Origin: Duodenibacillus massiliensis
Lineage (GTDB): Bacteria; Pseudomonadota; Gammaproteobacteria; Burkholderiales; Burkholderiaceae_F
Reading direction: 5' to 3'
DNA: 64,000 nucleotides
Assembly (NCBI RefSeq): GCF_900128485.1
Contig: NZ_LT635861.1
Location: forward strand, 658,190-722,189
The notes beneath the pieces are model-generated. The model saw only the letters and a program-made list of their open reading frames with translations. It had not been told where the DNA came from and did not search any database. Of the stretch, positions 2,005 through 46,971 are shown piece after piece. The position numbers and the translations under genes are program-made. Numbering within the stretch: position 1 is the first letter of the stretch; every line of letters begins with the position of its first letter.

Positions 2005-3240
2005 ATGCGTCGTGTTGTAGTGACCGGTCTGGGACTGGTCAGCCCCCTGGGCAATGATGTGGCCACCTCCTGGAATGCGCTCCTTGACGGGGCCTGCGGC
2101 ATTGACCGCATCACGCTTTTTGACGTGGAAAATTACGGCTGCCAGATTGGCGGTGAAGTCAAAAACTTTGATGCGGCACAGTATTTGCCCGCCAAAGAAG
2201 CCCGCCGCTTTGACCGCTTTATCGCTTTCGGGTGCGCGGCCGGCATGGAAGCGTTGGACGATGCGGGGCTTAAGTTCGAGCAGGGCGATCCCGCCGCTGA
2301 ACGCGCAGGCGTCATTCTGAGCGCCGGTATCGGCGGGCTTGACATGCTCTGCAAGAACTACGGCACGCTTCTTGAGCGTGGTCCGCGCCGTGTGTCGCCC
2401 TTTATGATTCCGGGCTCCATCATCAACCTCGCGGGCGGTGAACTCTCGATTTTAAGAAACCTCAAGGGCCCGAACCTCACAACGGTGACGGCCTGTGCTT
2501 CCGGCCTGCACGCGATCGGTGAAGCCTCCTGGATCATCCGCCGCGGCGACGCAGACGTGATGGTCGCGGGCGGCTGCGAAGGCTCGATCTGCCCTGACGG
2601 TATTGCCGGCTTTGACGTCATGCATGCGCTGTCGCGCCGTAACGACGATCCCAAGCATGCCTCGCGCCCCTTTGACACGGGCCGCGACGGCTTTGTGATG
2701 GGCGAGGGTGCCGGTGTTCTCGTGCTTGAAGAGTACGAACACGCCAAGGCCCGCGGAGCAAAGATCTACTGTGAAATCGCGGGTTACGGACTTTCCGGTG
2801 ACGCAGGCCACATCACGACCCCGTCCACCGACGGCCCCGTGCGCAGCATGAAGATGGCTTTGGGGCACGCTGAGATGAAGCCCGAAGACGTTATGTACGT
2901 GAACGCACACGGTACGTCCACCCCGATCGGCGACATCAACGAATGTAAGGCGATCCGTGAGGTCTTCGGCGAGCACACCGAGCACATGTGGGTGAGTTCC
3001 ACCAAGGGCGCCACGGGGCACCTTCTCGGGGGCGCAGGCGGCCTTGAATCGGTCTTTACCGTGAAGGCCATTGAAACCGACACGGTACCGCCGACCATTA
3101 ACCTCGAAAACCAGGATCCGGAATGTAAGGTCCGGGTGTGCGCCGGTAAACCGGAAAAGACGGTGATCAACGCCGCCATGAAGAATAACTTCGGTTTCGG
3201 CGGCACAAACGCCACGGTAATCTTCAAAAAGCTGAAATAA
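2005..3240 (+). CDS. fabF: Beta-ketoacyl-ACP synthase II
   Basis: Condenses malonyl-ACP with acyl-ACP, the elongation step of fatty acid synthesis. The 411-residue protein has the thiolase fold. The nucleophilic Cys is in VTACASGLHAIGEA, one catalytic His is in VNAHGTSTPIGD, a Lys is in SSTKGATGHLLGGAGG, and the NNFGFGGTNA C-terminal motif is present. Start ATG follows TAAGGATTAATCCGTT. It is separated from acpP by a terminator and is followed by another, so it is likely a single-gene unit within the fab cluster. Confidence 0.97.
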   Translation: MRRVVVTGLGLVSPLGNDVATSWNALLDGACGIDRITLFDVENYGCQIGGEVKNFDAAQYLPAKEARRFDRFIAFGCAAGMEALDDAGLKFEQGDPAAERAGVILSAGIGGLDMLCKNYGTLLERGPRRVSPFMIPGSIINLAGGELSILRNLKGPNLTTVTACASGLHAIGEASWIIRRGDADVMVAGGCEGSICPDGIAGFDVMHALSRRNDDPKHASRPFDTGRDGFVMGEGAGVLVLEEYEHAKARGAKIYCEIAGYGLSGDAGHITTPSTDGPVRSMKMALGHAEMKPEDVMYVNAHGTSTPIGDINECKAIREVFGEHTEHMWVSSTKGATGHLLGGAGGLESVFTVKAIETDTVPPTINLENQDPECKVRVCAGKPEKTVINAAMKNNFGFGGTNATVIFKKLK

Positions 3241-3259
3241 CCGCTCGGCTTTAAGCCGA

Positions 3260-3299
3260 AAAAAAGCCCGCCGGGAGGAAAGCTCTCAGGCGGGTTTTT
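3260..3299. terminator. Bidirectional terminator after fabF
   Basis: A seven-A run, then arms AGCCCGCC and GGCGGG around a loop, then five T. The A/T tracts on both sides allow it to serve fabF on the plus strand and the convergent EamA gene on the minus strand. Confidence 0.9.
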
Positions 3300-3401
3300 G
3301 CTGCCCCAGTCTTCGGGTTTCTCGCACAGCACTTTGCTCTGGCAAAGGCTCTTATCTTTGTGCTGCCGCTGATAGCCGTGACGGCGGCAGCAGCAGCCTG
3401 G

Positions 3402-4346
3402 TCAGCGCTTGCCGCTTGCATCCGGGACTGAGGCCGCGCCAGCGCTTTTGGCCTCAATGTCCTTCAGCTTTTTGATCGCCTTGATGTGCCCTTCGGTGCG
3501 CTTGGTGAGAAGGCTTGCGGCAATGCCCGAGACCACAATCGTCACCATGCCGACGGCGCTGGTAAAGCTGACGTCATCTCCGAAGATAAGAACACCCATG
3601 AGCGTGGAAAAGAGAATGACGGTGTACTGCAGGGCGCCTGAGAGCACCATGTTGCCGCGGGAAAAGGCCATCGTGAGCGTGAGCTGCCCGAGGGTCGCGC
3701 AGACGCAGAAAGCGAGAATGCTTGCGGCACCCGTGGCAGTCCACGCGTGAAAGCCGCCCGTGAAGGGAATGGCCGAGAGGCCGCAGACGCTTCCTGCAAG
3801 CATCAGGAAAAAGATGATGCGCGAAAGCGGCTCATGGTAGCTTCCGAGGCGCTTCACAAAGCCCGTGGCCAGCGCCGTGAAGCCGCCCGCGGCGATGCCG
3901 ACGCCCGCGGCAAAATATTCGTCCGGCCCGATGGTGGGCCCGAGCAGAATGACAACGCCCGCAAAGCCCGCGGCAAGGCTTGCCATCAAGCCCCAGTTGA
4001 TGTGGGAGTGATGCAGCAGCGACCAGATGACGACAAAGGTTCCCAAAAAGAGGGGAGCTGTGTAATTGAGCGTCATCGCAAGGCCGAGGTTGAGGTGCGA
4101 GAGCGAATAAATCCCCGCCACAATGGCGGCCACGCCCGCCAGAGACCGCACGGCATGCGCCCACGGGTGCTGCGTGCGCATTGAGGTGCCTTCGCGGTGC
4201 ATCATGATGAAAAAGACCACGAGCCCGAAAAACGACCGGTAAAAGAGCACTTCCCAGGCGCCAATCCCTTCAAGGCTCGCAAACTTAATGCACACACCGT
4301 AGACCGCGTAAAAAACGGCGGCGACAACCATCCAAAGCGACTGCAT
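3402..4346 (-). CDS. EamA/DMT-family membrane transporter
   Basis: Integral membrane protein of the drug/metabolite transporter superfamily, about 314 residues with roughly ten hydrophobic helices in two EamA repeats. The first begins at residue 1 (WMVVAAVFYAVYGVCIKFA) and the second around residue 150. The ATG at 4346 is preferred over an upstream TTG at 4358 because GGAG sits six bases before it. The C-terminal 30 residues are charged and cytoplasmic. Substrate cannot be read from sequence; family members export metabolites or amino acids. It converges on fabF and is not obviously linked to the neighbouring heme locus. Confidence 0.85.
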   Translation of the reverse strand: MQSLWMVVAAVFYAVYGVCIKFASLEGIGAWEVLFYRSFFGLVVFFIMMHREGTSMRTQHPWAHAVRSLAGVAAIVAGIYSLSHLNLGLAMTLNYTAPLFLGTFVVIWSLLHHSHINWGLMASLAAGFAGVVILLGPTIGPDEYFAAGVGIAAGGFTALATGFVKRLGSYHEPLSRIIFFLMLAGSVCGLSAIPFTGGFHAWTATGAASILAFCVCATLGQLTLTMAFSRGNMVLSGALQYTVILFSTLMGVLIFGDDVSFTSAVGMVTIVVSGIAASLLTKRTEGHIKAIKKLKDIEAKSAGAASVPDASGKR

Positions 4347-8569: not shown

Positions 8570-9082
8570 TCAGGCAAAAAGGGGCGCCATCGCTTCGGCG
8601 GCGTGCGCCAGATCACTTCTGTCCGGATGGGTGTCCGCGGCCTTGCGGCGTGCCTCACGCTCGGGCGTCACCTTGCCGCCCATCATCTGCGTCATGCGGT
8701 CAAAAACCTCTGAGTCGATGCGGCCCTGGCACAGAAACGTTGCTTTGAGCGTGTTGTTTTTGCCCAGCGCGGCGACTTCACCGGAGACTTTTTTGGCCCA
8801 GGCCTGCGCCCTCGGGTCTTCGGGTTCGGCGCCCATCGTGATGAAGGTCCCGATGGTTTTACCGGTCACACGCGCGGCAAAGGCCTTCATGTCTTCGGGC
8901 GCATCCCCCTTGTCGCACCAAAAACCCAGAAGCACGGTGCTGAAGCCCGTGAGATCAGAGGGGGCCGTCTCCGGCGTATAGAGAACGCCCGCGGCATAGG
9001 CGTCTGCGAGCCAATGCCCGACGATGCGGGTGTTGCCCGTGACGCTTGAAACCACAACAAGCGCTTTTGCTTCGTTTGTCAT
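8570..9082 (-). CDS. Flavodoxin-family protein in heme locus
   Basis: 170-residue single-domain flavodoxin-like protein. The N-terminal loop VVSSVTGNTRIVGHWLADAY matches the FMN phosphate-binding loop, and VLLGFWCDKGDAPEDM matches the second flavin loop. Its start ATG is directly abutted by the right end of an IscB element (9083-10670). It was probably the gene immediately after hutX before the insertion. Position suggests it gives electrons to the radical-SAM heme enzyme HutW or to heme breakdown. That is inference, resting on the known use of flavodoxin as reductant for the ChuW/HutW family. Confidence 0.85.
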   Translation of the reverse strand: MTNEAKALVVVSSVTGNTRIVGHWLADAYAAGVLYTPETAPSDLTGFSTVLLGFWCDKGDAPEDMKAFAARVTGKTIGTFITMGAEPEDPRAQAWAKKVSGEVAALGKNNTLKATFLCQGRIDSEVFDRMTQMMGGKVTPEREARRKAADTHPDRSDLAHAAEAMAPLFA

Positions 9083-9109
9083 AGAAATTCCGCGAGGAAA
9101 CCCGCGTCT

Positions 9110-10375
9110 TCAGACGCGGGAGGAATCGCGGCCCTCCTTTCTCAGTTCAGTTAAAAACATCTTGCGCTTCTCAAGAAGCGAAAGTTTCTTGTAGGAAATA
9201 CCGGCAGAAATCTTTGTACCGTTCAGACGGCGCACATCGAATGCACCCGAGGAGCGTCTGCCAAAAATAAAGCCGACTTCCCCTTTGCACAGCACCTTGT
9301 CAAAGAGCCTGAAGCCGTGCACTAGGTACGGAGCCTGATGGCGCTTGCGCACACCGCCTTTGAGAATCGTCAGCTTGTGGATCTGGCGATTGTGGCGGCG
9401 CGTCTGTTTCTGAAACAGGTATTCGCCCCGACGTTTTGCGTCGAGGACGCCGGCAATGCAGAAAGCGTCCGCGCAATGCGTCTTCGGCAAGCCCGCGACG
9501 ATGCGCTTGTGTTTGGTCAGATACCCGTAGGTATTCGTGACAGGCAATTCGGGATGGCGCTCGCGCAGGCGGTTGAGCACCGTCCAACGCATGATGCCCA
9601 TGAAAGTCTCTGCCCTGAAAGAAGCGCCGCGCCGGGGACTGAACTGCTTCAACTTGCCTGCGTGATACGCCTTGTGGCACGCCTCGCACAGTGTGATGAG
9701 GTTGCCCGGCGCGTCGCCTCCCGTTTTCCGACTCTCAATGTGATGCACGTTGAGAATCAGATCTTTCGATCTGCCTTTGCAGGCTTGGCAAACGTGACCG
9801 TCGCGGAACAGCACATATTCGCGCACGTTCCAAAAGCCAAGCTGCTCGCCCTGCTGATAGTCCGTGCCTTCGACTTCGGGATTCTTGATCTTCTGAATGT
9901 CGAAGGATGCGGTTTCAATCACGATATTGGTGATCGGAAGCACTCGGCAAACCGCTTCAATGCGCGATATGTGCGCCTGAATGCGGTTCTCCACGGACGG
10001 CGCAAGCCAGCCCTTGTGCTTCGATCGAACGCGGTTGTCGAAGCGTGGTGCGCGGTAGCGCGTCTTGCGATTGCGTCGGGCGCGGCGAAGTGCCAAGCGA
10101 TCCGAGAGCAAGCCCGTCACGTCCTGCCGCAGTTCGACCTCGGAAGCCAACAACTCTTCCTTGGCGGTCGTTGCGCTCAGGCCGACGTGCTTGTAGCCCG
10201 CATCCACACCCAAGGTGATCGGCTGCTTGGTTTCGCCCGTCGGCACCGTCAGTTGAATCACAAAGGGCGTTCGGCGCACAGGCACGGCCTTCCCGGCCCG
10301 AAGCAGCTTACGCGCCTTGGGCGGGGAGCACGGCATGAGCGGTTGCCCGCGCATATTCAACACAAAAACTTTCAA
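9110..10375 (-). CDS. iscB: IscB RNA-guided nuclease, copy 1
   Basis: 421 residues if started at TTG 10375, which matches the IscB N-terminus (KVFVLNMRGQPLMP) and the better-supported TTG of copy 4; ATG 10387 is the alternative. Domains in order: PLMP motif at 12-15; RuvC-I LGVDAGYKHVGLS with D58; Arg-rich bridge helix 97-115; RuvC-II IVIETASFD with E154; HNH with zinc pairs C196/C199 and C230/C233 and catalytic H211-H212, N225, H234; RuvC-III KTHCADAF with H300 and D303. All catalytic residues are present. Family proteins cut DNA guided by the omegaRNA encoded upstream. The stop lies 27 bases before the flavodoxin ATG. Confidence 0.93.
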   Translation of the reverse strand: MKVFVLNMRGQPLMPCSPPKARKLLRAGKAVPVRRTPFVIQLTVPTGETKQPITLGVDAGYKHVGLSATTAKEELLASEVELRQDVTGLLSDRLALRRARRNRKTRYRAPRFDNRVRSKHKGWLAPSVENRIQAHISRIEAVCRVLPITNIVIETASFDIQKIKNPEVEGTDYQQGEQLGFWNVREYVLFRDGHVCQACKGRSKDLILNVHHIESRKTGGDAPGNLITLCEACHKAYHAGKLKQFSPRRGASFRAETFMGIMRWTVLNRLRERHPELPVTNTYGYLTKHKRIVAGLPKTHCADAFCIAGVLDAKRRGEYLFQKQTRRHNRQIHKLTILKGGVRKRHQAPYLVHGFRLFDKVLCKGEVGFIFGRRSSGAFDVRRLNGTKISAGISYKKLSLLEKRKMFLTELRKEGRDSSRV

Positions 10376-10670
10376 AGTGTTCTCCATTGACGGATACCTC
10401 ACGGGCTCCGTCTGCTCGACCTTGCGGTCGGTGGTGATCCTTCGCCAATGTTGGAAGGGGTTTGTTGTCTGAAGCACCGCTCCTACCTCTCAGAGCTTTT
10501 AACCGCAGACCGCAGAGCGCGGGACTAGGATCGACATCCCGCGGTGCCTGTTTGCGTCCCGTCTTGCGACGGAACGGATTCCCAACCAACGGAGTCCGTC
10601 CGAAAACGGACTGAGGCTAGTCAACCAAGACTTGTTGCCAAGCCTCTGACTTCAGTCAGGGGTAGTTGAC
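10376..10670 (-). ncRNA. Predicted IscB omegaRNA scaffold, copy 1
   Basis: About 295 bases upstream of iscB are almost identical to copies 2 and 4 and full of stem-loops: CTGAC-TGAA-GTCAG, GTCCG-TTTT-CGGAC, CCGTC-GCAA-GACGG, CGCGGGA/TCCCGCG and CGACC-GCAA-GGTCG. IscB omegaRNAs are known to be encoded just upstream of iscB, with the guide at the 5' end coming from outside the element. Here the guide would be TACCAAAGGAATACGTAAGA (10690-10671), which contains the ribosome binding site of the interrupted gene. No long ORF of this stretch looks genuine. Confidence 0.8.
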
Positions 10671-10712
10671 TCTTACGTATTCCTTTGGTAACTTCGCAGA
10701 GTGTCCTGTCAG

Positions 10713-18484: not shown

Positions 18485-18856
18485 TTACTTCGCGTCCGGA
18501 TTCGGATCCTTGTCTTCAAAGAAACCCGGGTTCGGATTGGGAAGCGCTGAAACACAGCGGAAAACAATGACAGCCTCCGAGCCCGGTTTTCCGTCACGCT
18601 TTTGGCTTACGGCATCAAGAGGCTGCGCACTCTTGTCGCTTTTCTGACAGTAATCCTGCGCATAGTCGTTTACATACTCACGCACGCGGATTGCCATGTC
18701 TTCCCAGGGCCAGACGGCATAAAACTGCCAGGTGTCGCCCATCACGTTGGAGAGTTTTTCTTCCCGCTGATCGTAGAGAGCGGAGCGCCCGGAAAGATCG
18801 GCGCAACCCGAAAGTGCGGCTGCTGCAAGGCATAAAGCCAAAACTGCTTTTGTCAT
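18485..18856 (-). CDS. Putative lipoprotein, start codon abutted by IscB element
   Basis: 123 residues with a clear lipoprotein signal peptide: MTKAVLALCLAAAALSGC, lipobox LSGC with Cys18. The mature part is small, with two further Cys (CQKSD, FRCVSA) and a Pro/Asp-rich tail. No family recognised. The signal peptide fixes the ATG at 18856 as the true start, and that ATG is the first codon after the right end of IscB copy 2. Before the insertion it lay about 20 bases after the gene now at 20465-21652. Confidence 0.75.
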   Translation of the reverse strand: MTKAVLALCLAAAALSGCADLSGRSALYDQREEKLSNVMGDTWQFYAVWPWEDMAIRVREYVNDYAQDYCQKSDKSAQPLDAVSQKRDGKPGSEAVIVFRCVSALPNPNPGFFEDKDPNPDAK

Positions 18857-18883
18857 AGAAATTCCGCGAGGAAACCCGCGTCT

Positions 18884-20149
18884 TCAGACGCGGGAGGAAT
18901 CGCGGCCCTCCTTTCTCAGTTCAGTTAAAAACATCTTTCGCTTCTCAAGAAGCGAAAGTTTCTTGTAGGAAATACCGGCAGAAATCTTTGTACCGTTCAG
19001 ACGGCGCACATCGAATGCACCCGAGGAGCGTCTGCCAATAATAAAGCCGATTTTCCCTTTGAACAGCACCTTGTCAAAGAGCCTGAAGCCGTGCACTAGG
19101 TACGGAGCCTGATGGCGCTTGCGCGCACCGCCTTTGAGAATCGTCAGCTTGTGTTTCTGGCGATTGTGGCGGCGCGTCTGTTTCTGAAACAGGTATTCGC
19201 CCCGACGTTTTGCGTCGAGGACGCCAGCAATGCAGAAAGCGTCCGCGCAATGGGTCTTTGGCAAGCCCGCGACGATGCGCTTGTGTTTGGTCAGATACCC
19301 GTAGGTATTCGTGACAGGCAATTCGGGATGGCGCTCGCGCAGGCGGTTGAGCACCGTCCAACGCATGATGCCCATGAAAGACTCTGCCCTGAAAGAAGCG
19401 CCGCGCCGGGGACTGAACTGCTTCAACTTGCCTGCGTGATACGCCTTGTGGCACGCCTCGCAGAGCGTAATGAGGTTGCCCGGCGCGTCGCCTCCCGTTT
19501 TCCGACTCTCAATGTGATGCACGTTGAGAATCAGATCTTTCGATCTGCCTTTGCAGGCTTGGCAAACGTGACCGTCGCGGAACAGCACATATTCGCGCAC
19601 GTTCCAAAAGCCAAACTGCTCGCCCTGCTGATAGCCTTCGCCTTCAATCTCCGGGTTTTTGATCTTCTGAATGTCGAAGGATGCGGTTTCAATCACGATT
19701 TTGGTGATCGGAAGCACTCGGCAAACCGCTTCAATGCGCGATATGTGCGCCTAAATGCGGTTCTCCACGGCCGGCGCAAGCCAGCCCTTGTGCTTTGATC
19801 GAACGCGATTATCAAAACGCGGCGCACGGTAGCGGGTCTTGCGATTGCGTCGGGCGCGGCGAAGTGCCAAGCGATCCGAGAGCAAGTCCGTCACGTCCTG
19901 CCGCAGTTCGACCTCGGAAGCCAACAACGCTTCCTTGGCGGTCGTTGCGCTCAGGCCGACGTGCTTGTAGCCCGCATCCACACCCAAGGTGATCGGCTGC
20001 TTGGTTTCGCCCGTCGGCACCGTCAGTTGAATCACAAAGGGCGTTCGGCGCACAGGCACGGCCTTCCCGGCTCGAAGGAGCTTACGCGCCTTGGGCGGGG
20101 AGCACGGCATAAGCGGTTGCCCGCGCATATTCAACACAAAAACTTTCAA
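18884..20149 (-). pseudogene. iscB: IscB nuclease copy 2 with one amber codon
   Basis: Same 1266-base frame as copy 1, with a single TAG at 19753-19751 replacing CAG (Gln133). That separates RuvC-I and the bridge helix from RuvC-II, HNH and RuvC-III. Everything else is intact, including H211-H212, H234 and H300/D303. It is therefore probably an inactive copy, though a suppressor or later restart could give fragments. Several other substitutions relative to copy 1 lie near residues 165-172 and 300. Confidence 0.9.
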
Positions 20150-20444
20150 AGTGTTCTCCATTGACGGATACCTCACGGGCTCCGTCTGCTCGACCTTGCG
20201 GTCGGTGGTGATCCTTCGCCAATGTTGGAAGGGGTTTGTTGTCTGAAGCACCGCTCCTACCTCTCAGAGCTTTTAACCGCAGACCGCAGAGCGCGGGACT
20301 AGGATCGACATCCCGCGGTGCCTATTTGCGTCCCGTCTTGCGACGGAACGGATTCCCAACCAACGGAGTCCGTCCGAAAACGGACTGAGGCTAGTCAACC
20401 AAGACTTGTTGCCAAGCCTCTGACTTCAGTCAGGGGTAGTTGAC
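20150..20444 (-). ncRNA. Predicted IscB omegaRNA, copy 2
   Basis: Matches the copy 1 omegaRNA almost base for base with the same series of stem-loops, so the RNA may still be functional and could work with IscB from copies 1 or 4. The guide predicted from the left flank is CAAGCAGGCGATGGGCTAAT (20464-20445). Confidence 0.75.
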
Positions 20445-20464
20445 ATTAGCCCATCGCCTGCTTG

Positions 20465-24124: not shown

Positions 24125-24144
24125 GCGCATTTTGGAAAAGAACA

Positions 24145-24600
24145 ATGTCAACTACCCCTGACTTGCCTGTCACGAATACCTACGGGTATCTGACCAAACA
24201 CAAGCGCATCGTCGCGGGTTTGCCAAAGACGCATTGCGCGGACGCTTTCTGCATTGCCGGCGTCCTCGACGCAAAACGTCGGGGCGAATACCTGTTTCAG
24301 AAACAGACGCGCCGCCACAATCGCCAGATCCACAAGCTGACGATTCTCAAAGGCGGTGTGCGCAAGCGCCATCAGGCTCCGTACCTAGTGCACGGCTTCG
24401 GACTCTTTGACAAGGTGCTGTGCAAAGGGGAAGTCGGCTTTATTTTTGGCAGACGCTCCTCGGGTGCATTCGATGTGCGCCGTCTGGACGGTACAAAGAT
24501 TTCTGCCGGTATTTCCTACAAGAAACTTTCGCTTCTTGAGAAGCGAAAGATGTTTTTAACTGAACTGAGAAAGGAGGGCCGCGATTCCTCCCGCGTCTGA
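24145..24600 (+). pseudogene. IscB C-terminal remnant fused to host start codon
   Basis: The host left flank GGAAAAGAACAAT plus the first element base G make an ATG at 24145 with a ribosome site. It reads MSTTPD and then continues in frame into IscB residues 277-421. The product would be 151 residues holding RuvC-III (KTHCADAF) and the C-terminal target-interaction part, without nuclease centres. Probably a by-product, but it could be translated and couple to nrdG 27 bases downstream. Confidence 0.7.
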
Positions 24601-24627
24601 AGACGCGGGTTTCCTCGCGGAATTTCT
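24147..24627 (+). mobile_element. IscB element copy 3, 481-bp internal deletion derivative
   Basis: Keeps only about 16 bases of the left end (GTCAACTACCCCTGAC) and then jumps to iscB codon 277; the right end is complete, with its hairpins and GGAATTTCT. The omegaRNA, RuvC-I, RuvC-II and HNH parts are gone. Both transposition ends remain in outline, although the left subterminal hairpin is broken. It sits between nrdD and nrdG with the nrdG ATG directly at its right edge. Confidence 0.85.
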
Positions 24628-25104
24628 ATGAATTACTGCGGTTACACAAACTGTGACGCAGCCAACGGCCCGGGCATGCGTGTCTCAGTCTTTGTTTCGG
24701 GCTGCACGCTGCACTGCAAGGGGTGCTTTAACCCCGAGTCCTGGGACTTTAAGGCGGGTAAGGTTTTCGATGAGGCGATGCTTGCGAAGGTGCTCAAAGA
24801 CTGTGAGCATCCCTTTGTGTCCGGTCTGAGTGTCCTGGGGGGCGATCCCTTTGAGGCGGAAAACATGGACGGGGTGCTCGCGCTTTTAAAAGCCTTCCGC
24901 GCAAAGTTCGGCGACACCAGGACCGTGTGGATCTGGTCGGGAAGAACTTACGAAAAACTCATGAAGGACACAAAGGCCGCGCAGATCATTGCACTGAGCG
25001 ACGTGCTCGTGGACGGCCCCTACATCGAGAGCCGGCGCGTGACGGAACAGGGCCAGTGGTTCGGGAGCACCAATCAGCGTGTCCTCAACATTAAATCGCT
25101 CTGA
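24628..25104 (+). CDS. nrdG: Anaerobic ribonucleotide reductase activating protein
   Basis: Radical SAM activase that installs the glycyl radical on NrdD. 158 residues; the cluster motif CTLHCKGC is at residues 30-37, with GGDPF (SAM site) near 72. The N-terminus MNYCGYTNCDAANGPGMR matches the family, which fixes the ATG at 24628. That codon directly follows the right end of IscB copy 3, whose GCGGAA now serves as the nearest possible ribosome site. Confidence 0.96.
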   Translation: MNYCGYTNCDAANGPGMRVSVFVSGCTLHCKGCFNPESWDFKAGKVFDEAMLAKVLKDCEHPFVSGLSVLGGDPFEAENMDGVLALLKAFRAKFGDTRTVWIWSGRTYEKLMKDTKAAQIIALSDVLVDGPYIESRRVTEQGQWFGSTNQRVLNIKSL

Positions 25105-28205: not shown

Positions 28206-30332
28206 ATGTTCGTAAAAATCACCAAAAGCGGCAACGGCAAGTTCTCCTATGTGAAACTCGTGGAAGGGTATCGGGACGAGAAAGGCCGGGTGCGGCACCG
28301 CACCGTCAAAACCCTGGGACGCCTTGATGAACTGACAGCCAACGATCCCGACTATCTGGAAAATCTCAAACAGCAGTTCGGCAGTGAACGTGCGAGCAAA
28401 AAGCAGGCCGTTGCAGCCCTTCGGGCCCAGACGGCCGAAGCGGTGGCGCAGGTCCTTGGGCAAAGTGAGAGTCCGGCAGAGGACTTTCCTCTGCTTCGGT
28501 ATGGTCACTATGCACTGAAGCAAATCTGGAATAAGACCTTGTGCTTGCCCCGCAAATTTGATTACCTGCAAAGCGAGCTCAATCAGAAAGTGCAGTTCAG
28601 CTTCAATGCCGCCGCTTCTTTCATGATTTTCAGAAAAGCCATGAGACCGAGCTCTGTGTTGGCCGGTTTCCATGATCAGGATGAGTATCTCGGCGCTCCG
28701 CTGCAGGGAATCTCTCTGCAGGCCTGCTACAGGACGCTTGATTTTCTGAAAGAGAACAAGGATGAGATTTTCAACTGGGTCAACCGTCAGATGGACAAGC
28801 ACTACGGTACTGACAGAGCCACGCTTGTTTTTTATGACGTCACCAATGCGTATTTTGAGGCACCTCTGACAGATGCCGAGATGGAAAACTACCACCAGGA
28901 TTTTCTGGACAAACTGCAGGCTGCTGCTGAGCAGGCCCGCGCAGAAAAAGAACTTCCAGAAGCGTGTTTTGACGATGACGGCTCCGTTCTGCCGGACACT
29001 CTGCCGCAGGACTTCATCGATGCCGTGGCTGATGATCACAATCCTGAATTTTTGAGAATGCGCGGTCCCTCAAAGGAACACCGCTCGGATCTGCCGCTGG
29101 TATCCATTGCTCTGGTCATTGACAAGAATGGTTTTCCGATGGACTTTGAGGTTTTCAAAGGCAACAGCTCCGAGTACAGAACCATGGAATCCGCCATCAG
29201 AAAACTCAAGGATAAATACAACATCGGTCATGCCATTGTTGTTGCCGACAGAGGACTCAATTCAGCTGAAAATCTGTTGATGCTCCAGCGGCTTGAGCTG
29301 GGCTACCTGGTGGCCCAAAAAGTGAGTAATCTCAATGACGAAACACTTAAGCAGATGCTTGATCTGTCGGCCTATCAATCGATTAACGACAAAGATCCCG
29401 AAAGCAACAAATACCGCGTTATTGAGGACTGGGAGCGCACCGGCAAGAGCGGCTCAGTCAAATGCTCACTGGTTCTGACCTGGAGCGAAAAACGTAAGCG
29501 CCGTGATGAAAAATTGCTTGAGATCTGGGCTGATTTGATCCGCAGAAGAAGCGGGCAAGAACTTAAAACAAGAAAGCCGGCTTGGGCAGGTATCGCCACC
29601 ACCGATACTAAGGAAAAGAAGCAGGTGATCACCGGTATTGACGAAAGCGCCTTGGCAGAGCGCAAAGCGCTCTGCGGGTTTGCTGCTGTTGTTTATGACG
29701 AGTACTGCATTGAGCGGACGGAAATGGCTGACGAGCAGGAGAACAAAGCAAGGGGAGCAGCATCAGGTGCCGAGGTAAATCAGCCGGTTGACAAGGGAGA
29801 ACGGATACTGAAAACGGGCAAGGAAATCGCCTCGATGTACCACTGCCTGAATCAGATTGAAACGTGCTTCCGGATCATGAAATCCAACATCGGCTTGCGC
29901 CCGATGTACGTCTGGACTTCCAGCCATATTTACGGCCATATTACGGCTTGTGTACTGGCCCTGTTGCTGCTGAGGCTGCTGCAGGACAAACTGAAAAAGC
30001 AGGGAACGCCAATCAGCATTGACACACTGTGCCGTGAACTGCACGACTCAACCGTGATGGCTCAAATCATCGATGACAACCAAATCACCTTCTACCGGTG
30101 CGGCTTCGGCCCGAAGCTGCGCAAAGGAAATGAGTTGCTGACAGAAGAAGAACTTGGTGCTCAGTACGTTGCCGGCAAAGCACGCAACCACAAAGCTGAC
30201 ATCCTGCAGGCCTGCGGCCTGTCGCTGCCGCCTCGGGTGTGCTCGAGGCCGGAACTTGCCTCCTGCCTCGGCACCCGCTTCCCCACCAATCGCTCCGCCG
30301 TACCCATGCTCCGTGAACTGGGACAGCGGTAG
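28206..30332 (+). CDS. IS1634-family transposase
   Basis: 708-residue DDE transposase of the IS4/IS1634 group. The N-terminal SYVKLVEGYRDEKGRVRHRTVKTLGRLDEL is typical of the family. First Asp is in VFYDVTNAYFE (near residue 217), second Asp in VVADRGLNS (near 351), and catalytic Glu in NQIETCFRIMKSNIGLRP, the Y-R-E-K-type signature (near 556). The frame is complete. Start ATG follows GGGGAAGGACT. Appears functional. Confidence 0.94.
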   Translation: MFVKITKSGNGKFSYVKLVEGYRDEKGRVRHRTVKTLGRLDELTANDPDYLENLKQQFGSERASKKQAVAALRAQTAEAVAQVLGQSESPAEDFPLLRYGHYALKQIWNKTLCLPRKFDYLQSELNQKVQFSFNAAASFMIFRKAMRPSSVLAGFHDQDEYLGAPLQGISLQACYRTLDFLKENKDEIFNWVNRQMDKHYGTDRATLVFYDVTNAYFEAPLTDAEMENYHQDFLDKLQAAAEQARAEKELPEACFDDDGSVLPDTLPQDFIDAVADDHNPEFLRMRGPSKEHRSDLPLVSIALVIDKNGFPMDFEVFKGNSSEYRTMESAIRKLKDKYNIGHAIVVADRGLNSAENLLMLQRLELGYLVAQKVSNLNDETLKQMLDLSAYQSINDKDPESNKYRVIEDWERTGKSGSVKCSLVLTWSEKRKRRDEKLLEIWADLIRRRSGQELKTRKPAWAGIATTDTKEKKQVITGIDESALAERKALCGFAAVVYDEYCIERTEMADEQENKARGAASGAEVNQPVDKGERILKTGKEIASMYHCLNQIETCFRIMKSNIGLRPMYVWTSSHIYGHITACVLALLLLRLLQDKLKKQGTPISIDTLCRELHDSTVMAQIIDDNQITFYRCGFGPKLRKGNELLTEEELGAQYVAGKARNHKADILQACGLSLPPRVCSRPELASCLGTRFPTNRSAVPMLRELGQR

Positions 30333-42507: not shown

Positions 42508-42585
42508 GGTATCAAAAAAGATAGTAGTTGTATTTTTTAACCGTTCTTCCAAAAAGAAAGTTTAATACCTAAAATCAGTTGTAAC

Positions 42586-42888
42586 GTCAACTACCCCTGA
42601 CTGAAGTCAGAGGCTTGGCAACAAGTCTTGGTTGACTAGCCTCAGTCCGTTTTCGGACGGACTCCGTTGGTTGGGAATCCGTTCCGTCGCAAGACGGGAC
42701 GCAAACAGGCACCGCGGGATGTCGATCCTAGTCCCGCGCTCTGCGGTCTGCGGTTAAAAGCTCTGAGAGGTAGGAGCGGTGCTTCAGACAACAAACCCCT
42801 TCCAACATTGGCGAAGGATCACCACCGACCGCAAGGTCGAGAAGACGGAACCTGTGAGGTATCAAGGTATCCGTCAAAGGAGAACACT
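42586..42888 (+). ncRNA. Predicted IscB omegaRNA, copy 4
   Basis: About 303 bases with the same stem-loop order as copies 1 and 2. The predicted guide from the left flank is TACCTAAAATCAGTTGTAAC (42566-42585). An ORF starting at 42667 runs through this stretch in frame with iscB but is not conserved as protein among homologs, so the RNA reading is preferred. Confidence 0.78.
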
Positions 42889-44154
42889 TTGAAAGTATTT
42901 GTTTTGAACATGCGCGGGCAACCGCTCATGCCGTGCTCCCCGCCCAAGGCACGTAAGCTCCTTCGGGCCGGGAAGGCCGTGCCTGTGCGCCGAACGCCCT
43001 TTGTGATTCAACTGACGGTGCCGACGGGCGAAACCAAGCAGCCGATCACCTTGGGTGTGGATGCGGGCTACAAGCACGTCGGCCTGAGCGCAACGACCGC
43101 CAAGGAAGAGTTGTTGGCTTCCGAGGTCGAACTGCGGCAGGACGTGACGGACTTGCTCTCGGATCGCTTGGCACTTCGCCGCGCCCGACGCAATCGCAAG
43201 ACGCGCTACCGCGCACCACGCTTCGACAACCGCGTTCGATCGAAGCACAAGGGCTGGCTTGCGCCGTCCGTGGAGAACCGCATTCAGGCGCACATATCGC
43301 GCATTGAAGCGGTTTGCCGAGTGCTTCCGATCACCAATATCGTGATTGAAACCGCATCCTTCGACATTCAGAAGATCAAGAATCCCGAAGTCGAAGGCAC
43401 GGACTATCAGCAGGGCGAGCAGCTTGGCTTTTGGAACGTGCGCGAATATGTGCTGTTCCGCGACGGTCACGTTTGCCAAGCCTGCAAAGGCAGATCGAAA
43501 GATCTGATTCTCAACGTGCATCACATTGAGAGTCGGAAAACGGGAGGCGACGCGCCGGGCAACCTCATTACGCTCTGCGAGGCGTGCCACAAGGCGTATC
43601 ACGCAGGCAAGTTGAAGCAGTTTAGTCCCCGGCGCGGCGCTTCTTTCAGGGCAGAGACTTTCATGGGCATCATGCGTTGGACGGTGCTCAACCGCCTGCG
43701 CGAGCGCCATCCCGAATTGCCTGTCACGAATACCTACGGGTATCTGACCAAACACAAGCGCATCGTCGCGGGCTTGCCGAAGACGCATTGCGCGGACGCT
43801 TTCTGCATTGCCGGCGTCCTCGACGCAAAACGTCGGGGCGAATACCTGTTTCAGAAACAGATGCGCCGCCACAATCGCCAGATCCACAAGCTGACGATTC
43901 TCAAAGGCGGTGTGCGCAAGCGCCATCAGGCTCCGTACCTAGTGCACGGCTTCAGGCTCTTTGACAAGGTGCTGAGCAAAGGGGAAGTCGGCTTTATTTT
44001 TGGCAGACGCTCCTCGGGTGCATTCGATGTGCGCCGTCTGGACGGTACAAAGATTTCTGCCGGTATTTCGTACAAGAAACTTTCGCTTCTTGAGAAGCGA
44101 AAGACGTTTTTAACCGAACTGAGAAAGGAGGACGGCGATTCCTCCCGTGTCTGA
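42889..44154 (+). CDS. iscB: IscB RNA-guided nuclease, copy 4
   Basis: 421 residues from TTG 42889, supported by AAAGGAG six bases upstream and by the family N-terminus KVFVLNMRGQPLMP. Near-identical to copy 1, with all RuvC (D58, E154, H300, D303) and HNH (H211-H212, N225, H234) residues and zinc Cys pairs. A few C-terminal differences (LRKEDGDSSRV). The stop is 27 bases before the copA ATG. Confidence 0.93.
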   Translation: MKVFVLNMRGQPLMPCSPPKARKLLRAGKAVPVRRTPFVIQLTVPTGETKQPITLGVDAGYKHVGLSATTAKEELLASEVELRQDVTDLLSDRLALRRARRNRKTRYRAPRFDNRVRSKHKGWLAPSVENRIQAHISRIEAVCRVLPITNIVIETASFDIQKIKNPEVEGTDYQQGEQLGFWNVREYVLFRDGHVCQACKGRSKDLILNVHHIESRKTGGDAPGNLITLCEACHKAYHAGKLKQFSPRRGASFRAETFMGIMRWTVLNRLRERHPELPVTNTYGYLTKHKRIVAGLPKTHCADAFCIAGVLDAKRRGEYLFQKQMRRHNRQIHKLTILKGGVRKRHQAPYLVHGFRLFDKVLSKGEVGFIFGRRSSGAFDVRRLDGTKISAGISYKKLSLLEKRKTFLTELRKEDGDSSRV

Positions 44155-44181
44155 AGACGCGGGTTTCCTCGCGGAATTTCT

Positions 44182-46971
44182 ATGAAGGAAGTTCATTTTG
44201 ATGTGCGCGGCATGAGCTGCGCAGCCTGTTCTGCGCGCGTGGAAAAAGCCGCTGAGTCGGTCGCGGGAACAGAGGGTGTTGCCGTCAATCTGCTCAAAAA
44301 CAGCATGGTCTGCTCGGTTGACGACACGAAAGCCGATGCCGTGATTGCGGCCGTTGAGAAAGCCGTGGCTGATGCGGGTTACGAAGCCCTTTGCCGCGAA
44401 GAGGGCAAGACCGCCAAAGGTTCTGAAAACGAGCTGCAGGCAGCGGCAGACGCTGAAACCGGGCAGCTCAAAATCCGCCTTTACACCTCCGTTGTTTTGT
44501 GCGTGATTCTGATGGCGGCAGCCATGGGTCCGATGGCCGGGCTCGCCGTCCCCGCGTTTTTGGATCCGAGGGTAAGCCCCGTGTCGGCGGCGTTGACGCA
44601 GCTCCTGCTCACGATTCCCGTGGTGGCGCTTAACTTCAAGTTTTTCCGGCAGGGCACAAAGGGCCTTATCCACGGTGCGCCCAACATGGATACGCTTGTG
44701 GCGATCGGGGCCGGTGCGTCGCTTCTTTTCGGCATCTTTGCGCTTTACCGCATGGTTTTTGCCCTTGAGGCCGGCGACGCAGCGCAGACGATGCACTACG
44801 CGCATAACCTCTACTTTGACTCGGCCGCGATGATTCTGACGCTCATTACCGTCGGAAAATATTTTGAGGCAAGAGCCAAAGGCAAAACCACGGCCGCGGT
44901 TTCAGCGCTTTTAAAGCTTGTTCCGGAAACCGCGGTGGTTATGAGAAACGGCACTGAAGTCACCGTAAAGGCCGCAGAGATCGTTGCCGGTGACACCGTG
45001 GTTTTAAAAACCGGGGAGCGTATCCCCGTGGACGGCGTGGTTGTTGAGGGGACGGCAACGGTGGATGAGTCGGCGATGACCGGTGAAAGCCTGCCGGTTG
45101 CCAAAGCCGCGGGTGACAGTTTGTCGGGCGCAACGCTCATGACAAGCGGCCGTCTTTTGATGCGCGCCGTGCGGGTGGGGGATGAGACGGCACTTGCGCA
45201 GATCATTCGCCTCGTGGATGAGGCAACATCAGGAAAAGCACCGGTCGCGCGGCTTGCGGATAAAGTGAGCGCTTACTTTGTGCCCGCAGTGATCGGCATT
45301 GCTTTTGTGACGGCCGCCGTGTGGCTCGTGTGCGGCTACAGCTGGGAATTTGCCGCAACCTGTGCGGTCAGTGTCCTCGTGATTTCCTGCCCGTGCGCCC
45401 TGGGCCTTGCCACTCCCACGGCCATCATGGTGGGAACGGGCAGAGGCGCTGCCGAGGGACTTTTATTTAAGTCGGCGGAAGTGATTGAAAAGACGCGCTC
45501 CGTTACAACCGTTATTCTCGATAAAACGGGAACCGTGACCGAGGGCCGTCCGGCACTCACCGACATCGTGCCGCTTGCCGGCCAAAACGCAGACGAAGTT
45601 CTTACGCTTGCGGCTTCTGTTGAAGTCTTAAGCGAACATCCGCTGGCAAAGGCCGTTGCCGGGGCCGTCAAGGAAAAGAATTTGGCTTTACTGAAGGCAG
45701 AGGCCTTCACGCAGGCGCCGGGCCGTGTTGAGGCACTTGTGAGCGGCCGCAAAATCGCGGTGGGCAACGTTTCGGTGCTGGACGACACCGAAGCGCAGAA
45801 ACTCAGCCCCGCGCTTGAAAAGCTTGCCGACGAGGGAAAGACGGCGCTCGTTGTCGTTGCTGACGGTAAGCCGCTTGCGGTGCTTGCGGTGGCCGACGCC
45901 GTCAAACCGGAGAGCCATCAGGCGATTGCGGCTCTGAAGGCCAGGGGCCTTAAGGTGCGGATTGTCACCGGAGACAACGCCCGTACGGCAGCCGCGGTGG
46001 CGCGCGCCGTGGGGCTCACTGCGGCGGACGTGACCGCTCAGGTTATGCCTGCGGACAAAGAGCGCATCGTGCGTGAGCTGCAGGCCGGCGGCGAAACGGT
46101 TCTCATGGTCGGAGACGGCATCAACGATGCGCCGGCCCTGACGCGCGCGGATATCGGGATGGCAATCGGCGCGGGCACCGACGTTGCGGTGGAGTCGGCC
46201 GATATTGTGCTCGTGAGAAGCCGTCTCACGGACGTTGCCGCGGCCTATGACCTTTCTGCGGCCGTCATGCGCAATATCAAGGAAAACCTCTTTTGGGCGT
46301 TCTTTTATAACGCGGTCGGGATTCCGGTTGCCGCAGGCGTCTTTTACCTGTGGCTTGGCTGGACGTTAAATCCGATGATTGCCGCGGCGGCGATGAGCAT
46401 GAGTTCGGTTTCGGTGGTCAGTAACGCCTTAAGGCTCAGAGGCTGGAAGCGCGCAGCCGATCTCGCCGTCACCGTCAAGGCGCAGACAAAAGAGCGCCCC
46501 GAACCGCAGAAAGAACAACAGCCCGAAACACCGTGCGATGCGAAGCTCATTGTGGAAGGCATGCACTGCCCGCACTGCTCGGGGCGCGTCGAAAAGGCGC
46601 TCGCAGCCACGGCCGGCGTCACAAAGGCCGAGGTGGATCTCGCAAAGAAAACCGCCTTGGTCTGGGGGAGCGCTTCAGCTGAAACGCTCAAAGCGGCTGT
46701 TGTTGCCGCGGGTTACACCGTTTCTTCAACTACAACCAAAAAGAAGGAAATCAAAATGACAACCTACGTTCTCACAGTTAACGGCATGCACTGCACCCAC
46801 TGCAGCGGCAGTGTTCAGAAGGCGCTCTCGGCCGTGGCGGGCGTCACCAAAGCCGCGGTGGATCTTGAAAGCAAAAAGGCGACGGTCGAAGGCGAGGGTG
46901 TGAGCCCTGAGGCGCTTAAAGCGGCCGTGACGGATGCGGGCTTTGAAGTTGCCGACATCCGCTCCGAATAA
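44182..46971 (+). CDS. copA: Copper P1B-type ATPase with extra C-terminal HMA domains
   Basis: Exports Cu(I) across the inner membrane. 929 residues: N-terminal metal-binding HMA (GMSCAACS, C13 and C16), eight-helix core, transport motif SCPCALGLATP near 403, phosphorylation DKTGT near 446, SEHPLAKA and GDGINDAPAL. Unusually, two more HMA domains follow the core: GMHCPHCSG near 794 and GMHCTHCSG near 868. The family normally carries HMA domains at the N-terminus. The last domain has its own ribosome site and ATG (46756), so a free chaperone may also be made. The start ATG abuts IscB copy 4. Confidence 0.93.
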   Translation: MKEVHFDVRGMSCAACSARVEKAAESVAGTEGVAVNLLKNSMVCSVDDTKADAVIAAVEKAVADAGYEALCREEGKTAKGSENELQAAADAETGQLKIRLYTSVVLCVILMAAAMGPMAGLAVPAFLDPRVSPVSAALTQLLLTIPVVALNFKFFRQGTKGLIHGAPNMDTLVAIGAGASLLFGIFALYRMVFALEAGDAAQTMHYAHNLYFDSAAMILTLITVGKYFEARAKGKTTAAVSALLKLVPETAVVMRNGTEVTVKAAEIVAGDTVVLKTGERIPVDGVVVEGTATVDESAMTGESLPVAKAAGDSLSGATLMTSGRLLMRAVRVGDETALAQIIRLVDEATSGKAPVARLADKVSAYFVPAVIGIAFVTAAVWLVCGYSWEFAATCAVSVLVISCPCALGLATPTAIMVGTGRGAAEGLLFKSAEVIEKTRSVTTVILDKTGTVTEGRPALTDIVPLAGQNADEVLTLAASVEVLSEHPLAKAVAGAVKEKNLALLKAEAFTQAPGRVEALVSGRKIAVGNVSVLDDTEAQKLSPALEKLADEGKTALVVVADGKPLAVLAVADAVKPESHQAIAALKARGLKVRIVTGDNARTAAAVARAVGLTAADVTAQVMPADKERIVRELQAGGETVLMVGDGINDAPALTRADIGMAIGAGTDVAVESADIVLVRSRLTDVAAAYDLSAAVMRNIKENLFWAFFYNAVGIPVAAGVFYLWLGWTLNPMIAAAAMSMSSVSVVSNALRLRGWKRAADLAVTVKAQTKERPEPQKEQQPETPCDAKLIVEGMHCPHCSGRVEKALAATAGVTKAEVDLAKKTALVWGSASAETLKAAVVAAGYTVSSTTTKKKEIKMTTYVLTVNGMHCTHCSGSVQKALSAVAGVTKAAVDLESKKATVEGEGVSPEALKAAVTDAGFEVADIRSE
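46756..46971 (+). CDS. Possible internal CopZ-like chaperone ORF
   Basis: In-frame ATG at 46756 inside copA, preceded by AAGAAGGAAATCAAA, a good ribosome site. It would give a 71-residue HMA protein (GMHCTHCSG) of standard CopZ length. Best explained as a former copZ gene fused to the end of copA while keeping its start. Whether it is translated separately is unknown. Confidence 0.45.
   Translation: MTTYVLTVNGMHCTHCSGSVQKALSAVAGVTKAAVDLESKKATVEGEGVSPEALKAAVTDAGFEVADIRSE

What the first reader, a model, noticed from the sequence alone, without database searches (positions are those of the whole stretch)
10671..10690. Inferred IscB targeting rule: guide covers the ribosome site, TAM is the start codon (about ATGA)
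Known for IscB: the omegaRNA guide is taken from the left flank and the TAM lies at the right flank. Applied here, the guides are TACCAAAGGAATACGTAAGA (copy 1), CAAGCAGGCGATGGGCTAAT (copy 2), GCATTTTGGAAAAGAACAAT (copy 3 flank; its scaffold is deleted) and TACCTAAAATCAGTTGTAAC (copy 4). The right flanks begin ATGACA, ATGACA, ATGAAT and ATGAAG. Copies 1 and 3 carry obvious Shine-Dalgarno bases inside the guide. So the nuclease would cut an uninserted allele at its translation start and favour retention of the element there. The two ATGACA flanks also fit the NWRRNA TAM reported for OgeuIscB.
Basis: inference. Interest (0 to 1): 0.82.

Follow-up and report, generated by a model that had tools for sequence, protein, structure and literature searches.

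The report
IscB transposons parked at start codons
A Cas9-ancestor transposon in a gut Sutterella-type bacterium sits, in most copies, exactly in front of the start codon of a host gene, some of them essential in other bacteria, and its end appears to carry a replacement ribosome-binding site that would let the host gene still be translated.

Summary
The genome holds 24 IscB right ends, all followed by ATGA. Nine IS605-type tnpA elements share the last 50 bp and are also followed by ATGA, so ATGA is first of all the transposase target. At 15 of 19 two-ended copies (17 leniently), and at copy 3, that ATG is a host start codon (lepB, lolC/E, serC, ntrC, nrdG); background is 2.8% of all ATGA sites and 18% of non-interior ones. 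Congeners have uninterrupted ntrC, lolC/E and lepB junctions. The IS605 elements are rarely at start codons (1 of 9).

New here: the IscB right end carries AAAGGAGG directly before a covarying two-stem hairpin that closes usually 6-10 nt before the host ATG. It recurs across phyla, in all three iscB frames and once after its stop, and is absent from the IS605 elements. I read it as a portable ribosome-binding site making start-codon insertion tolerable. TAM = (A/G)TGA and nuclease-driven retention are plausible, unmeasured. A recognisable SD lies in only 8 of 18 guides; NWRRNA position 6 is unconstrained.

The parts
10671..10690 (-). Copy 1 left flank = predicted omegaRNA guide; native leader of the downstream gene (contains AAAGGAA)
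10431..10670 (-). Copy 1 HEARO RNA = omegaRNA scaffold (RF02033, model 1-211)
   Evidence: 136.5 bits against gathering 83
9110..10387 (-). Copy 1 iscB gene, intact (425 aa); RRXRR + HNH; NCBIfam guided_IscB above cut-off
9083..10670 (-). Copy 1 whole element, 1588 bp
9132..9140 (-). Shine-Dalgarno sequence AAAGGAGGG inside the element right end
9090..9131 (-). Two-stem right-end hairpin (CCGCGA..TCGCGG outer, CCCGCGTC..GACGCGGG inner); the iscB stop codon lies in its loop
   Evidence: z -3.63
9079..9082 (-). Copy 1 right flank ATGA = target/TAM and start codon of a 170-aa flavodoxin-fold gene (8570-9082)
20445..20464 (-). Copy 2 predicted guide CAAGCAGGCGATGGGCTAAT
18857..20444 (-). Copy 2 element; HEARO 20205-20444; iscB broken (two ORFs)
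18853..18856 (-). Copy 2 ATGA = start codon of a 123-aa protein of unknown family (N-terminus looks like a lipoprotein signal)
24127..24146 (+). Copy 3 left flank GCATTTTGGAAAAGAACAAT
24147..24627 (+). Copy 3 remnant: first 16 nt of the left end joined to element positions 1118-1588; scaffold deleted
24628..24631 (+). Copy 3 ATGA = start codon of nrdG
42566..42585 (+). Copy 4 predicted guide TACCTAAAATCAGTTGTAAC
42586..44181 (+). Copy 4 element; HEARO 42586-42825; iscB 42889-44154
44182..44185 (+). Copy 4 ATGA = start codon of a copper P-type ATPase (44182-46971)

Best explanation
These are IscB/HEARO insertion elements without a transposase of their own, probably moved in trans by the IS605-type TnpA elements of the same genome, which share the right end and insert next to the same motif (TCAT on one strand = ATGA on the other). 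Insertion at ATGA leaves the element between a host gene's leader and its start codon, in the same direction as the gene. Three consequences follow. (1) The host leader becomes the 5' guide of the omegaRNA and, being leader or operon DNA, is likely transcribed (inferred). (2) The start codon plus A becomes the target-adjacent motif of the empty site, so IscB would be able to recognise an allele that lost the element (inferred from the known IscB layout). (3) The right end supplies a new ribosome-binding site: AAAGGAGG, then a two-stem hairpin, then about 7 nt to the host ATG; folding the hairpin brings the Shine-Dalgarno to a normal distance from the start codon (inferred from sequence, covariation and distribution). 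The third point would explain why copies persist at the start codons of genes that are essential elsewhere, while related ends without the SD do not.
For: 24 of 24 IscB right ends precede ATGA. 15 of 19 two-ended copies are at called start codons, against 45 of 250 non-interior ATGA sites (binomial P about 1e-8); 17 of 24 IscB ends against 1 of 9 IS605 ends (Fisher P 0.004; two-ended 15/19 P 0.001). Downstream proteins align to curated families from residues 1-4 for SerC, LplT, NrdG, NtrC, LolC/E and LepB. Congeners have uninterrupted ntrC, lolC/E and lepB junctions. IS605 elements: tnpA and tnpB identified, same last 50 bp, no SD before the hairpin. Among 34 non-redundant right ends from many phyla, the outer stem pairs 4.18 of 5 positions against 2.96 when arms are swapped (maximum 3.56 in 2000 shuffles), and an SD match of 6 nt or more lies just before it in 17 of 34 against 0 to 2 of 34 in control windows. 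The SD falls in all three iscB frames and once after the iscB stop. In named relatives 24 of 44 junction ATGs open an ORF of 100 aa or more, against 16% of other ATGA sites.
Against: No expression, translation or cleavage data. In this genome the SD is predicted to pair weakly with the linker UUUCU (4.5 kcal/mol to open), although the cost is 0 to 2.2 in most relatives. Only about half of the relatives have a strong SD at the position; some have a weaker or more distant one. Right ends not caught by the box search (44 of 83 loci) were not tested for SD and covariation, except Sutterellaceae ends read by eye. A ribosome translating iscB into the hairpin loop would melt it, so coupling may compete with the proposed SD bridging. 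Essentiality of lepB and lolC/E is known from other bacteria, not tested here.
Confidence: 0.65

Rival explanations
1. The nuclease itself selects start codons: IscB cuts empty alleles whose TAM is ATGA in transcribed leaders, so copies persist only where the guide is transcribed and the TAM present; the right-end SD is incidental.
For: Guide and TAM layout agrees with known IscB biology (PMC9640706); one IsrB reads NTGA, others NTG or NTGG (PMC9581776); TnpB is described as a retention nuclease (PMC11870625). Many start-codon copies lie in closely spaced co-directional gene pairs, so guides are probably transcribed.
Against: The IS605 elements also carry an RNA-guided nuclease gene (tnpB) and use the same target, yet are not concentrated at start codons. 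Several IscB copies at start codons have broken or deleted iscB. It does not account for the conserved SD.
Confidence: 0.2
2. Plain survivorship: TnpA inserts at any ATGA, insertions inside genes are lost, and start codons are what remains.
For: ATGA is shared with the IS605 elements; no clear gene interior is hit.
Against: Among non-interior ATGA sites only 18% are start codons, against 79% observed (P about 1e-8); the IS605 elements with the same end show 1 of 9.
Confidence: 0.07
3. The host gene is translated by coupling: ribosomes finishing iscB re-initiate at the nearby ATG, and the hairpin serves only the transposase.
For: In copy 1 the iscB stop lies in the hairpin loop, 27 nt before the host ATG; copies mostly sit inside operon-like gene pairs.
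Against: Several copies have broken or largely deleted iscB but keep the right end; in relatives the stop position varies from well before to within or beyond the hairpin while SD and hairpin stay; the SD is kept at nucleotide level across frames.
Confidence: 0.15
4. AAAGGAGG is kept because it pairs with the constant TTCCTCC box in an alternative hairpin, or for another DNA-level role in transposition, not for ribosomes.
For: GGAGG can pair with CCTCC in several relatives, and folding picks this in L121 and L138.
Against: IS605 elements keep TTCCTCC without any GGAGG partner, so the TnpA end does not need it; the position relative to hairpin and ATG fits a ribosome site.
Confidence: 0.12

Closest known systems
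IscB / HEARO (OMEGA) elements, e.g. OgeuIscB
   Same: HEARO RNA directly 5' of iscB, guide in the left flank, RuvC with inserted HNH, PLMP motif, TAM on the 3' side of the target (PMC9640706). From memory, not checked here: HEARO elements were described in 2009 as lying next to ATGA or GTGA.
   Different: Right-flank motif is ATGA with positions 5-10 loosely constrained, unlike the NWRRNA or NTAAA of tested IscBs; start-codon occupancy and the SD-hairpin end are not described in the papers I could read.
IsrB
   Same: DtIsrB reads NTGA/TTGA, other IsrBs NTG or NTGG (PMC9581776): all start-codon-like.
   Different: IsrB lacks HNH and nicks; this protein has an HNH domain.
IS605-type tnpA/tnpB elements of the same genome
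   Same: Share the last 50 bp of the right end and the ATGA target; tnpB present in the copy examined.
   Different: Genes run the other way; no SD before the hairpin; 1 of 9 at start codons against 17 of 24.
mRNA leaders where a hairpin brings a distant SD near the AUG (phage T4 gene 38, from memory)
   Same: SD - hairpin - short spacer - AUG layout.
   Different: Here it is part of a mobile element and would be used by whichever host gene is hit.

Membership tests
IscB (RNA-guided endonuclease of OMEGA systems) | IscB protein with RuvC and inserted HNH, catalytic motifs kept | tested here: met
   NCBIfam guided_IscB 362.9 bits (cut-off 175); Pfam RRXRR and HNH; alignment to OgeuIscB-like chains keeps the LGVDAG, VIE, HH..N..H and H..DA motifs
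IscB (RNA-guided endonuclease of OMEGA systems) | HEARO/omegaRNA immediately upstream, guide at its 5' end from the flank | tested here: met
   RF02033 model positions 1-211 end at the flank boundary; RNA 5' end not measured
IscB (RNA-guided endonuclease of OMEGA systems) | TAM-dependent, RNA-guided cleavage | not testable with these tools
   needs a cleavage assay
IS200/IS605-type mobile element | No target duplication, subterminal hairpins, fixed short target motif | tested here: met
   uninterrupted sites in congeners; right-end hairpin; ATGA at all ends
IS200/IS605-type mobile element | Own Y1 transposase | tested here: not met
   the 1588-bp element carries no tnpA; separate IS605 elements in the genome do, so it is filed as non-autonomous
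Portable ribosome-binding site (proposed) | SD plus stem conserved at nucleotide level at translation-compatible spacing | tested here: met
Portable ribosome-binding site (proposed) | Drives translation of the host gene | not testable with these tools
   needs a reporter assay

The most novel reading that the evidence does not exclude
IscB transposons as a family evolved to live at translation starts: the transposase target, the nuclease TAM and the host start codon are the same (A/G)TG(A/G) sequence, the host leader serves as guide, and the element end carries a hairpin-bridged Shine-Dalgarno that restores translation of whichever gene it lands on, making insertion near-neutral even in front of essential genes.
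Probability: 0.5. Interest if true: 0.82.

Novelty: new variant of a known kind. Interest (0 to 1): 0.63.

Why it matters
It would explain how these Cas9-ancestor transposons spread without harming their hosts, why tested IscB/IsrB target motifs often resemble start codons, and how the guide gets transcribed. It would also give a simple, testable case of a mobile element that carries its own translation signal for the host gene it displaces.

Tried and rejected
Two automatic searches for the right-end hairpin were poor and were replaced by searches anchored on the TTCCT/TTTCC boxes, the second of which does not use the outer stem, to avoid circularity. NWRRNA as the local TAM was rejected (position 6 not constrained). 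'Guide covers an SD' as a general rule was weakened (8 of 18). Survivorship alone was rejected by the background counts. Primary papers on HEARO discovery, ISC transposons, the first IscB report and the IscB/TnpB retention study were not held, so novelty is judged only against the open library (10 searches).

Full report
What is there. The window holds four copies of one element family. Copies 1, 2 and 4 carry a HEARO RNA (RF02033, about 136.5 bits against a gathering score of 83) whose first position abuts the left flank; copy 3 keeps only 16 nt of the left end joined to the last 471 nt. The protein of copy 1 is IscB by a curated model (guided_IscB, 362.9 bits, cut-off 175), has RRXRR and HNH domains and aligns to solved IscB chains including OgeuIscB.

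How general it is. The genome has 21 HEARO matches and 24 IscB right ends. All 24 are followed by ATGA; bases 5 to 10 are not fixed. Nine further ends belong to IS605-type elements with a Y1 transposase and, in the copy examined, a TnpB gene. They share the last 50 bp of the right end and are also followed by ATGA. So ATGA (TCAT on the other strand) is the transposase target, and TnpA acting in trans is the likely mover of the IscB elements. That the IscB TAM is the same motif is an inference from the known layout of IscB (guide 5', motif 3' of the target; PMC9640706) and from IsrBs that read NTGA, NTG or NTGG (PMC9581776).

Is the ATG a start codon? I wrote a simple gene caller, checked it on the window, and joined the flanks of the 19 copies with both ends mapped by BLAST. 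In 15 the junction ATG is a called gene start. Two more were called interior only because an in-frame start lies further upstream; their proteins match family models from residue 5 (AI-2E transporter, L071) and residue 12 (U32 peptidase, L083), so they are probably starts too. Two are intergenic. Copy 3 adds nrdG. Among 1614 ATGA sites in 224 kb of the same genome 2.8% are starts, and among the 250 not inside genes 18%; 15 of 19 against 18% has P about 1e-8. Other targets are SerC, LplT, NtrC, LolC/E, SppA and LepB, most of whose matches begin at the protein's first residues. In congeneric genomes ntrC, lolC/E and lepB are found with no element between leader and start, while lplT is recognised from its start codon on.

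Why start codons? The IS605 elements give a natural control: same end, same target, their own RNA-guided nuclease gene, but 1 of 9 at a start codon against 17 of 24 (P 0.004). The visible difference at the end is that the IscB elements have AAAGGAGG directly before the right-end hairpin and the IS605 elements have an A-rich stretch there. The hairpin has a constant plan: outer stem, TTCCT, inner stem and loop, TTTCC, outer stem, then usually 6-10 nt, then the host ATG. It folds well (z -3.63).

Is the SD real? I fetched 80 relatives from named genomes (Sutterella, Parasutterella, Desulfovibrio, many Clostridia and Bacilli, Methanobrevibacter, Methanolobus and others). Using a search that ignores the outer stem, 39 of 83 loci gave a boxed hairpin, 34 non-redundant. 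Their outer arms pair at 4.18 of 5 positions against 2.96 when arms are swapped between loci (maximum 3.56 of 2000), with many different complementary arms, and 17 of 34 have an SD match of 6 nt or more just upstream against 0, 0 and 2 of 34 in control windows. Among 23 with a scored SD, 16, 4 and 2 lie in the three frames relative to iscB and one lies after the stop, which argues for conservation of the nucleotides, not of the protein. Junction ATGs in relatives open long ORFs more often than other ATGA sites (24 of 44 against 16%). Two groups, S. wadsworthensis-type and an Erysipelotrichaceae genome, use ATGG instead. The remaining loci were not captured by the box search; I do not know whether they lack the feature or are truncated.

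Mechanism. I propose that the right end is a portable ribosome-binding site: the folded hairpin brings the SD to about 8 nt from the host ATG. Shown: sequence, covariation, distribution, empty sites. Inferred: translation from it, transcription of the guide, and any cutting of empty alleles. The predicted weak pairing of the SD with the linker in this genome (4.5 kcal/mol) and possible coupling to iscB translation are open questions. Retention by cutting is described for TnpB (PMC11870625) and is plausible for IscB here but untested.

'TAM is the start codon' is a good description of the flank, with the caution that the motif is at least the transposase target. 'Guide covers the ribosome site' is true by position, but a clear SD is present in only 8 of 18 guides, against 33 of 49 ordinary ATGA starts. 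'Fits NWRRNA' is not meaningful.

Novelty. The element is a known kind. That HEARO elements abut ATGA or GTGA was, to my memory, reported in 2009; I could not open that paper. I found no description of the SD-hairpin end or of systematic start-codon occupancy in the open library; subscription papers were not searched.

Noticed in passing
L084 (G000:C22:342650-349650), 2326-4001: IS605-type element with tnpB (432 aa) and tnpA on the strand opposite to the ATGA; nine tnpA-linked ends in the genome share the IscB element's last 50 bp.
   Followed up: partly
L069 3520-6001: An IscB element with an internal duplication (element positions 606-1507 twice), giving a 757-residue stop-free frame.
   Followed up: no
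L070 906-953 and L072 3757-3804: Two more distant right ends (77% identical) followed by GTGA instead of ATGA.
   Followed up: no
L109-L111, L126, L114, L117; L156, L161, L169, L170, L176: Related IscB elements in Sutterella wadsworthensis, canine Sutterella and Erysipelotrichaceae RD49 abut ATGG, not ATGA, suggesting a subgroup with a different target motif.
   Followed up: partly
L064 2224-5001: An IscB element interrupted after position 54 by about 1.3 kb of other DNA.
   Followed up: no
window 28206-30332: 708-aa ORF that looks like another transposase.
   Followed up: no
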